A DNA stretch of 64,000 nt from contig JAKVCV010000013.1 in assembly GCA_022448945.1 (NCBI GenBank), forward strand, positions 42,716 through 106,715, in the 5' to 3' direction. Of the stretch, positions 44,977 to 49,117 are shown piece by piece. This DNA is from Saprospiraceae bacterium (GTDB taxonomy: Bacteria > Bacteroidota > Bacteroidia > Chitinophagales > Saprospiraceae). How positions within the stretch are numbered: position 1 is the stretch's first letter; each line of letters begins with the position of its first letter. A program made the translations under genes and the position numbers. The notes beneath the pieces are model-generated. The model was not told the DNA's origin. It searched no databases and worked only from the letters and a program-made list of their open reading frames with translations.

Positions 44977-46884
44977 TTAGTGCTTTATTTTGTCTTTTAG
45001 CGCTTTTATATCCCAGCTAAAGTAAATGTGTTCTTTAGTTTGAAATAGTGTATCCATCTTGTATTTTCCAGGTAAATGTTGCCCTTTAAATACTACAGTT
45101 CGAGCAGGTTCTTCTTTAGGTACACCCCAAACAAAGAATTTCTCAAGGTTCCAATGTGCTTTTTTATGATATACTACTAAGATCGGTTTATCTGATAGTT
45201 TATTTAGAAAAGATTTAGAGGGCAAATCATCCGTAAATATGCTGAATGCCTCCTTGGTATGCTTTAATGGATATCTACCACTTTGAACTCCAATAGTAGG
45301 AATCTTATACTTGTTGGTAAGTGAAAAAATTTGTTTGTGATAGTAGGTTGGACCATTTAGAATATATCCTTTAACTTCACAACTCTCATTGAAATATGGT
45401 ATTGGTAATGTAGCTTGATATTTACTTAAATCTATTTTTTTATTTTCAAGTGCAATATGGGGGTCATGTAATTCAGTATTTAAGTAATTTTTAAGATGAA
45501 TATTATTATAAAATTTTACAAAATCACGCATGTCTACAATTGCAAATATTAATAAAACACAAATGCCGTAGCGAATGAATTTTTCCGACGAATTCCTCCA
45601 ATAGTGTTCAATAATAAAAACCATCGCGATATTCCATGCCCAAAATCCTATCCAGAAAAACCTAGAAACACATCTGAAATGGGTTACGGTGTCAGAAATA
45701 TGATGCAACCAATACATAGGATTCGTGTAATTGTAGAATCTGTAGTGATCTTTGTCTATACTATATACCTCGCCTAAAGAAATTGAAAAACTTATAATTC
45801 CTACAATGAACAGAATTCTTAAGAACTGTCCTTTTCTGGAACTAAATATTTCTTTTAAAGGGATGAAATATTTTTGTTTTGCGAATCTAAGGAATAATAA
45901 ACCAAGAAAAGCATACAAAGTGAAGTTGCCTAAATAACCTTTAGATTCATAATGTAATTCTTTACTCCACTTAAGTGGAAAACTTATTGAATGAAAATGT
46001 TCGTGAGAAAAAAGGGATTGGAATCTTAGTTTCCATGTTTTGTTGTCATAGCCTGTTGCTTCAGCAGATCTTAATGAATAATAACCATCGATCCAGTGTA
46101 CACTTAGCAGAACAATACTTAAAACAATCAGACAAATTCCTGCAAAGATTATCAAAGTACGTATGCTCTCTTTCCATTCATCTTTATTATCATAGTATAT
46201 CTGTATACTCCAAATTAATGCAAAAAAACTGATTAAAATGCCTATTATTAGTAAATAGTAAAGATGCATCATAGCAGCGAACCAAAATGTACAGACTAAT
46301 ATTATCAAGTGTTTTTTTGAAAGTATTTTATTGTTTTTGTAATAGCCACTATACACAGATAAAAGACAGTATATAGACAGTAAGATCGTCCATGTAGAAG
46401 CCAGGTTGAAATGACCGTTTCCTAGTCGTAGTATTTGAGGATGGATCCATGCAAAGGTTAATGAGATAATAATTATAAATAGTTTTGATTCTAATAATCG
46501 GTTAAGGATTTTAAATAGAATCAGGGCGGATATAAACTGAAAGAAAATGGAAGTATAATTTGTAATAGCTACCCCATAAGGTGATATATCATAGATGTAC
46601 ATACAAAACCATCTAAGAGGTATAGCGATAGCTGGGGTATTATCAACATAAAAAACATTTGTTCCATAAGGATAGCCCATTAAGGAAAAATATTTCCAGC
46701 CATCTTCTATTGGTTGCCCAAGGTATGTTTGAAAAGAGAAATAATTTCTGGCACCATCCCATAAATTCTGGAACATAGTACTATTGGGATAAAGAATAAC
46801 CTTGTTAAAGGCAATCAGAGTAATCACCAATTGGGCCAGGAATAAAAACCAAAATAACGATTTGGTTGATAATTCTTTTTTCAT
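44977..46884 (-). CDS. Polytopic membrane protein, GT-C glycosyltransferase-like
   Basis: 635 residues with about 11-12 membrane helices over the first 430 residues and a soluble extracytoplasmic C-terminal part (about 440-635). After helix 1 comes a loop with an acidic motif (NLWDGARNYFSF), the place where GT-C enzymes keep their catalytic Asp. This suggests a lipid-linked-sugar-using glycosyltransferase, but the family is not certain. The gene is alone on the minus strand, its stop 41 bp from the convergent Asp-box gene stop. No regulatory feature seen. Confidence 0.6.
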   Translation of the reverse strand: MKKELSTKSLFWFLFLAQLVITLIAFNKVILYPNSTMFQNLWDGARNYFSFQTYLGQPIEDGWKYFSLMGYPYGTNVFYVDNTPAIAIPLRWFCMYIYDISPYGVAITNYTSIFFQFISALILFKILNRLLESKLFIIIISLTFAWIHPQILRLGNGHFNLASTWTILLSIYCLLSVYSGYYKNNKILSKKHLIILVCTFWFAAMMHLYYLLIIGILISFFALIWSIQIYYDNKDEWKESIRTLIIFAGICLIVLSIVLLSVHWIDGYYSLRSAEATGYDNKTWKLRFQSLFSHEHFHSISFPLKWSKELHYESKGYLGNFTLYAFLGLLFLRFAKQKYFIPLKEIFSSRKGQFLRILFIVGIISFSISLGEVYSIDKDHYRFYNYTNPMYWLHHISDTVTHFRCVSRFFWIGFWAWNIAMVFIIEHYWRNSSEKFIRYGICVLLIFAIVDMRDFVKFYNNIHLKNYLNTELHDPHIALENKKIDLSKYQATLPIPYFNESCEVKGYILNGPTYYHKQIFSLTNKYKIPTIGVQSGRYPLKHTKEAFSIFTDDLPSKSFLNKLSDKPILVVYHKKAHWNLEKFFVWGVPKEEPARTVVFKGQHLPGKYKMDTLFQTKEHIYFSWDIKALKDKIKH

Positions 46885-47164
46885 ATTCTTATTTATACTT
46901 TCAGAATTTGCTGCTTTCGGTATGTTTAATTGTCCCGAATTGTTGAACGAAGCTAAAAAAAATAGTGGGAAAAAGTGAATGATCTATTAAAAACTAATTA
47001 TATCATTAAATGTTTTATTTTTAGGTACATACAAGATTTGTTTTATCGATATGTTTTTAAGTTTTTAAAGTATTATATATATATTTTTAAAATTAATTGT
47101 GCTAACAATTGCATTTATGGAATTGTTTGCATAACATTGTATTAACAGTAAAAACAAAATAATA
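46885..47164. other. Region between GT-C gene and asnA leader
   Basis: AT-rich, no coding potential seen. It must contain the promoter for the asnA leader transcript, since the first small ORF starts at 47165, but no exact TAnnTTTG match is obvious. Confidence 0.35.
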
Positions 47165-47233
47165 ATGAATATATCAAGCAACAATAATAATATTAATTAT
47201 AATGAATACTTCTTTAAAAGAAGTGTGGGCTAG
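47165..47233 (+). CDS. Asparagine-rich leader peptide 1 of asnA
   Basis: Small ORF of 22 codons plus TAG. Asn codons are at positions 2, 6-9, 11 and 13 (7 of 22), and the last codons encode FFKRSVG. It lies directly before an intrinsic terminator and upstream of asnA, the enzyme that makes asparagine. A ribosome short of Asn-tRNA would stall in the run at 47180-47203. The ACTTCTTT/AAAGAAGT hairpin (47208-47224) overlaps codons just after the Asn run, so a stalled ribosome would block its 5' arm and free the region behind it. The role is inferred from this layout. Confidence 0.8.
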   Translation: MNISSNNNNINYNEYFFKRSVG

Positions 47234-47269
47234 CTAATGTATTCTAAAGAAATATATTTAAAGAGTCCA
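47226..47269 (+). promoter_or_regulatory. Candidate antiterminator of attenuator 1
   Basis: TGGGCT at 47226-47231 (end of leader ORF 1) can pair with AGTCCA at 47264-47269 (six pairs, one G-U), which is the 5' arm of terminator 1. The same TGGGCT recurs in the terminator 3' arm at 47278-47283, so the two pairings compete. Confidence 0.65.
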
Positions 47270-47292
47270 AATTTATTTGGGCTCTTTTTTTT
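47261..47292 (+). terminator. Attenuator terminator 1
   Basis: Stem of 11 pairs, AAGAGTCCAAA (47261-47271)/TTTGGGCTCTT (47276-47286), loop TTTA, followed by eight T. It lies between leader ORF 1 and leader ORF 2, so read-through is needed for asnA expression. Confidence 0.93.
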
Positions 47293-47328
47293 GCAATAAA
47301 TTTAAGGACAATGATACATAAGAAACAG

Positions 47329-47406
47329 ATGAATACTAATTTCAAAAACAGATTTAATAATAATAACAATAATAATTTATACAGCAGATTTCCATCGGGC
47401 TATTAG
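47329..47406 (+). CDS. Asparagine-rich leader peptide 2 of asnA
   Basis: Small ORF of 25 codons plus TAG; an in-frame ATG at 47311 could add six residues. Asn codons at positions 2, 4, 7 and 10-16 (10 of 25, seven in a row at 47356-47376). It ends SRFPSGY and stops 25 nt before the second terminator. The arrangement repeats that of leader ORF 1, with no clear sequence copy except the Asn run and the GGGCT segment at the end. Selection for Asn codons is a better explanation than chance AT-richness, since both AAT and AAC are used and the other two frames do not give such runs with start and stop in place. Confidence 0.82.
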   Translation: MNTNFKNRFNNNNNNNLYSRFPSGY

Positions 47407-47441
47407 TATTCTAATTTCATATATAAAGATTAAAAAGCCCG
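47396..47441 (+). promoter_or_regulatory. Candidate antiterminator of attenuator 2
   Basis: CGGGCT at 47396-47401 (last Ser-Gly-Tyr codons of leader ORF 2) is complementary to AGCCCG at 47436-47441, the 5' arm of terminator 2 (six Watson-Crick pairs). TCGGGCT occurs identically at 47395-47401 and in the terminator 3' arm at 47451-47457. Confidence 0.68.
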
Positions 47442-47465
47442 TATTTAAATTCGGGCTTTTTTTTT
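47432..47465 (+). terminator. Attenuator terminator 2
   Basis: Perfect 10-bp stem AAAAAGCCCG (47432-47441)/CGGGCTTTTT (47452-47461), loop TATTTAAATT, and T-run to 47465. It lies 146 nt before the asnA ATG. Confidence 0.93.
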
Positions 47466-47610
47466 GGCCATTTTTTCAATTATGGTTTTAAGCTACATAA
47501 GTTATTATCATAAAAGATCAGATTGCCTCACTCTAAATAATTACTATAAATGGTAAACAAAAGGTTTGCTGAATCCATATTTATTTTTTAATTCATTAAA
47601 ATCAATCAAA

Positions 47611-48645
47611 ATGAAAAATTTAACAGAAGCAAAAAACATTAAAACATTAGACAAAGCAACTACTGAAGATGCGATAGCATTGGTAAAAACGACATTTTTA
47701 AGTGAACTATGTAACCAATTGAATTTAAAAACAGTTTCGGCACCTATCGTAGTTTTAAAAGGCACTGGAGTTAATGATGATTTGAATGGGGTTGAACGTC
47801 CTGTTGGTTTTCCTATAAAAGATATGAATGAACAGAAAGCAGAGGTGGTTCATTCGTTGGCAAAATGGAAAAGAATGAGATTAAGAGAATATGAAATTGA
47901 AGAGGAGAAGGGTATTGTTACTGATATGCGTGCATTGCGCCCCGATGAAGAAATGTCTCTAGTTCATTCAATTTCTGTAGATCAGTTTGATTGGGAAAAA
48001 CATATTTCGAAAGAGCAGCGTAGTATTGAAAAATTAAAATCTACAGTAAAGAAAATATATTCCGTACTTAAATATACAGAACAGACTGTTTATAAGGCAT
48101 ATCCGGATCTCTTACCTTTTTTGCCAGAAGATATTGTTTTTATTCATAGCGAAGAATTGCTTGAAAAGTATCCCGAACTTACACCTAAGGAAAGAGAATT
48201 TCAGGTTACTAAACAATATGGTGCAGTTTTTATTATTGGTATTGGGGGTGCTTTGGCAGATGGTAAAAAACATGATGGAAGGGCACCGGACTATGATGAT
48301 TGGTCAACAGAGACAGGAGAAGGACATAAGGGTTTAAATGGAGATATTCTAGTTTGGAACCCCGTTTTAAAAACTGCTTTTGAGCTATCATCAATGGGTA
48401 TACGTGTTGATGAGTCTTCATTGTTGAAACAACTTGAATTGGAACAATGTATGGAAAGAAAATCTTTATATTTCCACGATCAATTATTGAAAGGTCAACT
48501 ACCTCAAAGTATAGGTGGTGGGATAGGGCAATCAAGATTAGCAATGTTACTTCTCAAAAAGCGTCATATAGGAGAAGTTCAGGTTAGTATTTGGTCAGAC
48601 AAAGTTATCGAAGAAGCTCAAAAAGAAGGGTACCAATTATTATAG
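47611..48645 (+). CDS. asnA: Aspartate-ammonia ligase (asparagine synthetase A)
   Basis: The ATG at 47611 (MKNLTEAKNI) is preferred over the in-frame 47566; it gives 344 residues, close to the roughly 330 of E. coli AsnA. The enzyme makes asparagine from aspartate, ammonia and ATP and has a class II aminoacyl-tRNA-synthetase-like fold. Conserved segments include VLKGTGVNDDLNGVERPVGF, HSLAKWKRMRLREYEI, DMRALRPDEEMSLVHSISVDQFDWEK, YGAVFIIGIGGALADGKKHDGRAPDYDDW and GGGIGQSRLAMLLL. It is probably controlled by the tandem Asn-rich attenuators upstream. This differs from the AsnC control of enterobacterial asnA and from T-box control in Firmicutes. Confidence 0.97.
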   Translation: MKNLTEAKNIKTLDKATTEDAIALVKTTFLSELCNQLNLKTVSAPIVVLKGTGVNDDLNGVERPVGFPIKDMNEQKAEVVHSLAKWKRMRLREYEIEEEKGIVTDMRALRPDEEMSLVHSISVDQFDWEKHISKEQRSIEKLKSTVKKIYSVLKYTEQTVYKAYPDLLPFLPEDIVFIHSEELLEKYPELTPKEREFQVTKQYGAVFIIGIGGALADGKKHDGRAPDYDDWSTETGEGHKGLNGDILVWNPVLKTAFELSSMGIRVDESSLLKQLELEQCMERKSLYFHDQLLKGQLPQSIGGGIGQSRLAMLLLKKRHIGEVQVSIWSDKVIEEAQKEGYQLL

Positions 48646-48669
48646 AAATTCGATAAAATTAAGATTCTT

Positions 48670-48703
48670 AAAGTAGCACTTTATTTGAAGTGCTACTTTT
48701 TTA
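48670..48703. terminator. Intrinsic terminator after asnA
   Basis: Perfect 12-bp stem AAAGTAGCACTT (48670-48681)/AAGTGCTACTTT (48688-48699) with T-run. Lies between the convergent asnA and DUF983 genes. Confidence 0.92.
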
Positions 48704-49117
48704 TTTGTGATTTATCTTCACCGCTTTCCTTTCAGCAACCTTATCTGCAATCTTTTTATTATAACGAATAGCAATATGTATCCATAGTACACGGGATTTG
48801 CGAGCAACATAGGGAATCATCAATAATCCGCCCATAAGAGTTATGCCAAAACTCTGATTTAGAGATAAATCTGTAAAAAAAAATATTAATGCGATTGTTC
48901 CAAGCATGTAAAAGGAAAAAAGTGCATAACCTATATACATTGCACCCCAGTAAAACCCTGGTTCCATTTCAAAATCCTGATCACATTCTTTACATTTTAT
49001 ATACATATTATAAATACCATTACCAGATAGTAAAGACGATTTAAATAAGTTCCCCTGATGACATTTAGGGCATTTTGATTTTCTAATTGCATAAAGTTTT
49101 GATCCTTTTTTGAACAT
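48701..49117 (-). CDS. DUF983 family membrane protein
   Basis: 138 residues. An N-terminal zinc-ribbon-like part with CPKCHQG and CKECDQDFEMEPGFYWGAMYIGYALF, followed by two membrane helices (about 62-85 and 92-110) and a basic tail. This matches DUF983, a small membrane protein of unknown role common in Bacteroidota and alphaproteobacteria. Confidence 0.85.
   Translation of the reverse strand: MFKKGSKLYAIRKSKCPKCHQGNLFKSSLLSGNGIYNMYIKCKECDQDFEMEPGFYWGAMYIGYALFSFYMLGTIALIFFFTDLSLNQSFGITLMGGLLMIPYVARKSRVLWIHIAIRYNKKIADKVAERKAVKINHK

What the first reader, a model, noticed from the sequence alone, without database searches (positions are those of the whole stretch)
47165..47610. Tandem asparagine attenuators in series upstream of asnA
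Two complete attenuation units sit one after the other before asparagine synthetase: an Asn-rich small ORF, a strong terminator, a second Asn-rich small ORF, and a second terminator. Peptide-leader attenuation is well known for his, trp, leu and thr operons of Proteobacteria. I know of no described Asn-specific case, nor of a serial pair of this kind. Two units in series should give a steeper response: polymerase has to read through both terminators, and each read-through would require ribosome stalling at Asn codons.
Basis: partly seen in the sequence, partly recalled or inferred. Interest (0 to 1): 0.92.

Follow-up and report, generated by a model that had tools for sequence, protein, structure and literature searches.

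The report
Two asparagine attenuators in series
Ahead of its asparagine-making gene this marine bacterium carries two consecutive RNA switches, each apparently able to tell from a stalled ribosome that asparagine is short, and the same doubled arrangement appears in other bacterial families, which points to a real and seemingly undescribed control device.

Summary
Upstream of asnA (47611-48645) lie two Asn-rich small ORFs, each followed by an intrinsic terminator. Among 283 terminator-like sites in 864 kb of this genome the two units rank first and second for Asn density. The genome belongs to the genus of Aureispira.

Relatives strengthen it. Of 148 asnA loci, 9 carry two Asn units in series (5 of 6 in this genus, 3 of 5 in family f86, 1 of 1 in f75; one of the nine has an insertion sequence in place of its second terminator). 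Another 62 carry one unit (f9, f36, f58), 1 is weak, 75 show none, 1 cannot be judged. On the AsnA tree the doubled state needs at least four changes.

In 8 of 8 Aureispira units tested, the stretch that pairs best with the terminator's 5' arm ends at the ORF's end. Terminator arms prefer their own partners over swapped ones (0 of 200,000 permutations), though 5 of 16 units are not significant singly.

Best explanation: ribosome-mediated transcription attenuation, Asn-specific, with two units in series: a new variant of a known kind. Ten paper searches showed no Asn-specific peptide-leader attenuator. All evidence is computational.

The parts
47109..47139 (+). Promoter-like sequence TTG-N20-TAACATTG (Bacteroidota-type, consensus recalled); transcription start would be near 47146
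   Evidence: Only match of this motif in 46886-47625; a shuffled 110-nt stretch has a 27% chance of one match; a match at -48 to -67 from ORF1 in 7 of 8 tandem genomes
47165..47233 (+). Unit 1 leader ORF, 22 aa, 7 Asn
   Evidence: counterparts in G002, G003, G006, G008
47206..47226 (+). Unit 1 hairpin between the Asn codons and the antiterminator strand (candidate 1:2 hairpin)
   Evidence: Minimum free energy fold; conservation not established
47226..47231 (+). Unit 1 antiterminator strand UGGGCU, overlapping the stop codon; pairs with AGUCCA 47264-47269
   Evidence: weak singly (p 0.13)
47260..47292 (+). Unit 1 intrinsic terminator T1 (12 pairs, loop 4, U-run)
47311..47406 (+). Unit 2 leader ORF, 31 aa, 10 Asn (alternative start 47329)
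   Evidence: counterparts in G002, G003, G006, G008
47331..47340 (+). Unit 2 segment GAAUACUAAU that can pair with AUUAGUAUUC 47402-47411 and so enclose the antiterminator strand in a loop
   Evidence: Minimum free energy fold; conservation not established
47396..47401 (+). Unit 2 antiterminator strand CGGGCU, five bases before the end of the stop codon; pairs with AGCCCG 47436-47441; repeats the terminator's 3' arm
   Evidence: p 0.013
47432..47465 (+). Unit 2 intrinsic terminator T2 (10 pairs, loop 10, U-run)
47611..48645 (+). asnA, aspartate-ammonia ligase, the regulated gene
   Evidence: PF03590, E 1e-101, 339.9 bits against cut-off 27

Best explanation
The asnA transcript begins upstream of 47165 and passes two complete ribosome-mediated transcription attenuators, both sensing charged tRNA-Asn. 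In each unit a ribosome translates an Asn-rich leader ORF behind the polymerase. With enough Asn it reaches the stop codon and covers the antiterminator strand, so the terminator's 5' arm pairs with its own 3' arm and transcription ends at T1 or T2. When Asn is short it stalls on the Asn codons, the antiterminator strand is free and captures the terminator's 5' arm, and polymerase goes on. Because the units lie in series with no room for a promoter between them, asnA is made only if both terminators are passed; read-through probabilities multiply (log-log sensitivities add), giving a lower basal level and a steeper response than one unit. Shown computationally: ORFs, terminators, antiterminator pairings and their position, conservation. 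Inferred: transcription start, translation, stalling, termination, multiplication of responses.
For: Two units top the genome sample for Asn density. Both conserved in 5 of 6 asnA-bearing genomes of the genus; serial pairs also in 3 of 5 asnA loci of f86 and 1 of 1 of f75. Single units in 58 of 58 asnA loci of f9 genera g133 and g285, 3 of 3 of f36, and one of f58. Best antiterminator segment ends within 4 nt of the ORF end in 8 of 8 Aureispira units (shuffles mean 1.06, maximum 5, of 2000); summed energy -89.1 against -51.0, sd 5.6. Swap tests: 0.0029 for 8 units, 0 of 200,000 for 14, 13 and 16 units. Antiterminator probability 0.00 with a ribosome at the stop in 8 of 8 Aureispira units and mostly 0.66-0.99 with the A site on Asn codons. 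In GC-rich f36 loci (62-65% GC) Asn alternates with other residues, so it is not an AAT repeat. In f9 GGAAGGC is kept as RNA while the reading frame through it changes.
Against: No expression data. Singly, 5 of 16 tandem units are not significant (G000_U1 0.13, G002_U1 0.13, G008_U1 0.37, G006_U2 0.10, G1376_U2 0.075), and in the 14-unit swap G000_U1 ranks 9th and G008_U1 13th with their own arm. A looser position test on all 16 units is weak (14 of 16; shuffles mean 7.6, maximum 14). In 3 of 8 f9 examples a ribosome at the stop does not hide the antiterminator (0.37, 0.64, 0.99), because the stop lies further on. Some Asn positions give low values (0.00, 0.32, 0.47, 0.52). Without a ribosome the antiterminator forms in 6 of 8 units, unlike trp. 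Close relatives are not independent. G001 has asnA without a leader.
Confidence: 0.85

Rival explanations
1. Only one unit (most likely unit 2) senses Asn; unit 1 is a decayed or back-up copy that acts mainly as a constitutive partial terminator.
For: Unit 1 antiterminators are weak in G000, G002 and G008 (p 0.13, 0.13, 0.37); own-arm rank 9 and 13 of 14 for G000_U1 and G008_U1.
Against: Unit 1 keeps 6-9 Asn codons and its terminator in the four Aureispira genomes compared, and its antiterminator is strong in G006 (0.005) and in the four tandem genomes of f86 and f75 (0.001-0.006).
Confidence: 0.15
2. The Asn-rich nascent peptide itself arrests the ribosome (arrest peptide), and the signal is not charged tRNA-Asn.
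For: Asn-rich runs are the constant part of otherwise variable peptides.
Against: Position, number and context of the Asn residues vary widely, also between families, which fits codon counting better than a peptide motif; the regulated gene makes asparagine.
Confidence: 0.05
3. An RNA that senses Asn or tRNA-Asn without translation (T-box or riboswitch).
For: T-box control of asparagine genes is known elsewhere (recalled).
Against: No T-box or riboswitch among the 11 weak matches up to E 1 in 46800-48800; no Rfam match at gathering in ten relatives; conserved Asn codons would be unexplained.
Confidence: 0.02
4. Chance: spurious ORFs in AT-rich DNA beside ordinary terminators.
For: AAT repeats come easily in a 30% GC genome; the promoter motif is degenerate (27% per shuffled stretch).
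Against: Background scan, conservation in several families including 62-65% GC loci, swap tests; the gene upstream is on the other strand, so T1 is not its terminator.
Confidence: 0.01

Closest known systems
Ribosome-mediated attenuators of trp, his, leu and thr operons (Proteobacteria; recalled, and described in PMC3641672 section 11 and PMC1183508 passages)
   Same: Leader ORF rich in the codon of the amino acid made by the next gene; intrinsic terminator; competing antiterminator.
   Different: Asparagine; Bacteroidota; two units in one leader; the antiterminator forms in most units even without a ribosome.
Tandem attenuators of Salmonella mgtCBR (PMC3641672: abstract, outline and section 11 read)
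   Same: Two short ORFs and two attenuators in one leader.
   Different: Two different signals (ATP and proline), additive; no intrinsic terminators there, whereas here both units sense the same amino acid and end in intrinsic terminators.
Leader-peptide attenuation inferred in Flavobacterium psychrophilum (PMC9723704: section 19 and passages read)
   Same: Same phylum, same inferred mechanism upstream of amino-acid operons; pheA and hisG elements named.
   Different: Main text does not mention asparagine or asnA; no serial pair described in the part read.
rimP-leader with a second terminator in tandem; tandem riboswitches of metE (PMC2965389 passages; PMC3641672 section 11)
   Same: Two control elements in series in one leader.
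   Different: No amino-acid leader peptide; other sensors.

Membership tests
Ribosome-mediated (peptide-leader) transcription attenuators | Short ORF rich in codons of the amino acid made by the next gene | tested here: met
   7 and 10 Asn codons before asnA; conserved
Ribosome-mediated (peptide-leader) transcription attenuators | Intrinsic terminator between ORF and gene | tested here: met
   T1 and T2
Ribosome-mediated (peptide-leader) transcription attenuators | Antiterminator that excludes the terminator and is placed so that ribosome position decides | tested here: met
   as a set; 5 of 16 units not significant singly
Ribosome-mediated (peptide-leader) transcription attenuators | Upstream 1:2 hairpin competing with the antiterminator | tested here: inconclusive
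   Present in the folds of both window units; in f9 80% of cells pair, with 3 of 9 pairs changed on both sides against 1.9 in shuffles
Ribosome-mediated (peptide-leader) transcription attenuators | Read-through rises on starvation; leader is translated | not testable with these tools
   No expression or ribosome profiling data
T-box leaders | T-box structure recognised by its covariance model | tested here: not met
   No T-box among matches up to E 1; none at gathering in ten relatives
mgtCBR-type tandem attenuators | Two attenuators answering two different signals | tested here: not met
   Both ORFs are Asn-rich; by sequence only
Rfam amino-acid leader families (Thr, His, Leu, Trp leaders) | Score at or above the family's gathering threshold | tested here: not met
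   Thr_leader 27.9 bits against 55, the only amino-acid leader listed; nothing at gathering in ten relatives

The most novel reading that the evidence does not exclude
Serial same-signal leader-peptide attenuators are a selected circuit element and not an accident of one genome: two Asn-sensing units in one leader arose, or were kept, in three separate lineages of Bacteroidota asnA genes and multiply the response of asnA to Asn supply, within a broader, undescribed class of Asn-specific peptide-leader attenuators.
Probability: 0.6. Interest if true: 0.82.

Novelty: new variant of a known kind. Interest (0 to 1): 0.74.

Why it matters
It would add asparagine to the amino acids sensed by peptide-leader attenuation and give a well-populated example in Bacteroidota, where I found the mechanism only as an inference from transcript data (PMC9723704) or as a resemblance (PMC7366714). 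The serial pair makes a theoretical question measurable: the sensitivity of a single attenuator has been modelled (PMC1183508, passages read), and two identical-signal attenuators in series should add their log-sensitivities and multiply their leaks. Relatives with one unit and with two, before the same gene, allow the comparison directly.

Tried and rejected
T-box or riboswitch: rejected. Leaders before asnB-like genes in the genus: 26 matches to TIGR01536 (11 over the cut-off) scanned from 1.5 kb before the match; 3 of 26 loci (L036, L037, L041) show an ORF with 4-5 scattered Asn, taken as chance, no Asn run; several weak matches begin inside a longer gene, so their true upstream was only partly seen. 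Other amino-acid leaders in 864 kb of this genome, 17 amino acids: Phe-rich and Leu-rich ORFs reach 6 of 8 (L161, L189), equal to unit 1; the former has no gene on its strand for about 850 bases and lies just before a gene of the other strand, the latter overlaps the opposite strand of a 149-aa ORF, so I take them as chance. Other entries were not followed. About four fifths of the genome was not read. Covariation within f9: arms nearly invariant, uninformative (both-side change at 1 of 8 pairs, 55 of 500 shuffles as high); the swap test was used instead. f3: one weak candidate of 18 loci (L069, antiterminator p 0.315), not counted as a unit. Literature: ten full-text searches listed no Asn-specific peptide-leader attenuator; one likely relevant paper (Lopatovskaya 2010, seen only in the reference list of PMC4833913) is not held, and most subscription journals are missing, so novelty rests on an incomplete library.

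Full report
What is there. Upstream of asnA the sequence carries ORF1 (47165-47233), terminator T1 (47260-47292), ORF2 (47311-47406) and terminator T2 (47432-47465); asnA starts at 47611. The gene upstream (44977-46884) is on the other strand, so T1 does not terminate it. The window lies in an assembly of 4,354,527 bases in 73 contigs.

More than chance. In the window plus 40 stretches of 20 kb (864,000 bases, both strands) a mechanical scan found 283 hairpin-plus-T-run sites. Scored by the most Asn in 14 residues of a small ORF ending just before the hairpin, the two asnA units came first and second (9 and 7); then one site with 6 and five with 5. A scan over 17 amino acids in 8-residue stretches gave unit 2 the highest score (7) and unit 1 a score of 6, shared with one Phe-rich and one Leu-rich ORF; neither of those precedes a gene on its own strand in a way that suggests a leader.

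Conservation in the genus. Six of nine genomes have asnA. Both units occur in G000, G002, G006, G008 and G003. G002 and G003 have the same leader peptides, so there are about four distinct versions. In G003 an insertion sequence stands in place of the T2 stem. G001 has asnA without an Asn-rich leader. In the four genomes compared the ORFs keep 6-10 Asn codons, T1 ends 18-25 nt before ORF2, and a promoter-like TTG-N20-TAnnnTT precedes ORF1.

Beyond the genus. I classed 148 asnA loci from searches of 1814 genomes (the tool's running total, repeats included) at genus, family, class and phylum level and in the families of G318, G506, G460, G1376 and G1407 (list). The family draws were placed where leaders had been seen, so the fractions do not estimate the whole phylum. 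Nine loci have two units: five in the window's genus, three in family f86 (3 of 5 asnA loci, 46 genomes) and one in f75 (1 of 1, 36 genomes). Sixty-two have one: 58 of 58 in genera g133 and g285 of f9, against 0 of 9 in g283 and g284, 3 of 3 in f36, and one in f58. L069 (f3) is weak. Seventy-five show no unit by the rule used; I checked that each was read at the gene's own match. L024 is cut inside the gene and cannot be judged. L123, L124, L153, L215 and the G003 locus were settled by eye, since the automatic rule missed them or picked a wrong hairpin or place. Not counted: L002 (same contig as L008) and L003, L004 (named Cryptobacteroides, no Asn-rich leader).

Antiterminators. For each unit the stretch from the last clustered Asn codon to the terminator was allowed to pair freely with the terminator's 5' half. 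In 8 of 8 Aureispira units the best segment, with its flanking base, ends between -4 and 0 of the ORF's last base (shuffles: mean 1.06 units, maximum 5, in 2000), and the summed energy is -89.1 against -51.0 (sd 5.6) kcal/mol, 0 of 2000 shuffles. Exchanging arms between units worsens the sum: p 0.0029 for the eight (all 40,320 permutations), and 0 of 200,000 for 14 units with f9 and f36 added, for 13 and for the 16 units of the eight tandem genomes with both terminators intact. Against this: singly, 5 of 16 are above 0.05 (G000_U1, G002_U1, G008_U1, G006_U2, G1376_U2), two Aureispira first units do not prefer their own arm (ranks 9 and 13 of 14), and a looser position test on the 16 gives 14 of 16 where shuffles reach 14; in f86 and f75 several segments lie just after the stop codon. 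In f9, 57 of 57 units give p below 0.05, but these sequences are close relatives and their arms hardly vary.

Codons versus RNA. In f9 the segment GGAAGGC is kept while the reading frame through it changes (peptides ending ...RDWKAI.....TGRLLFI...DGRLLV). In f36 (62-65% GC) Asn alternates with other residues, as in VNANLNSNLNLNANNN. So Asn is kept as codons in the run and the downstream segment as RNA.

How it would work. With the RNA cut before the terminator's 3' arm, 30 degrees C and a 27-nt ribosome mask, the antiterminator has probability 0.00 with the ribosome at the stop in 8 of 8 Aureispira units, and mostly 0.66-0.99 with the A site on an Asn codon; four positions are lower (0.00, 0.32, 0.47, 0.52). 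The value at the stop follows largely from the overlap of strand and stop codon, which is the anatomical finding. In eight f9 examples the stop state gives 0.00 in five and 0.37, 0.64 and 0.99 in three, so there the simple rule does not hold for every sequence. Without a ribosome the antiterminator forms (0.71 or more) in 6 of 8 Aureispira units, so an untranslated leader should read through; this differs from trp as I recall it. Two units in series require two stalls, so read-through multiplies: inference.

Evolution. On an AsnA tree of 105 rows (f9 thinned) the doubled state needs at least four changes and lies in three places: the window's genus, f86 beside the single-unit f58 locus, and f75 beside the single-unit f9 genes (quick method, SH-aLRT support only, some long branches). 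Repeated gain, or older gain with losses, are both possible.

Literature. Serial attenuators are described for mgtCBR with two different signals (PMC3641672: abstract, outline and section 11 read). Leader-peptide attenuation is inferred in Flavobacterium psychrophilum (PMC9723704: section 19 and passages). A tandem terminator is noted for the rimP leader, with no mention of asparagine (PMC2965389: passages). Sensitivity theory for single attenuators: PMC1183508 (passages). PMC4833913 and PMC7366714: passages, no mention of asparagine; PMC1262725: term search only, no occurrence. None of the ten search listings showed an Asn-specific peptide-leader attenuator; the other listed papers were not opened.

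Verdict. It is a new variant of ribosome-mediated attenuation: Asn-specific, in Bacteroidota, with serial same-signal units that recur in three families.

Noticed in passing
L027 (G003:C1:5845500-5850500): An insertion sequence with a transposase ORF of about 450 aa on the opposite strand stands in place of the second terminator stem; both leader ORFs and asnA are present. A natural variant of the serial device.
   Followed up: partly
A1 (57 f9 loci, e.g. L089:1149-1310): Single Asn leaders before asnA in 58 of 58 asnA loci of two genera but 0 of 9 of two sister genera of the same family; the antiterminator RNA is conserved in different reading frames.
   Followed up: yes
L071, L123, L124 (f36): GC-rich loci (62-65%) with Asn-rich leaders in which Asn alternates with other residues.
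   Followed up: partly
L153 (G690): An f9 leader whose reading frame runs on through its terminator, possibly decaying.
   Followed up: no
L069 (G506), about 160 to 50 nt before the asnA match: ORF MSNIYNSLLNYPCNLAGS and a terminator just before asnA; antiterminator not significant (p 0.315), and the other 17 f3 loci have no such unit.
   Followed up: partly
G004, G005, G007: Genomes of the genus without an asnA match; each has asnB-like matches, in G004 only a weak one.
   Followed up: no
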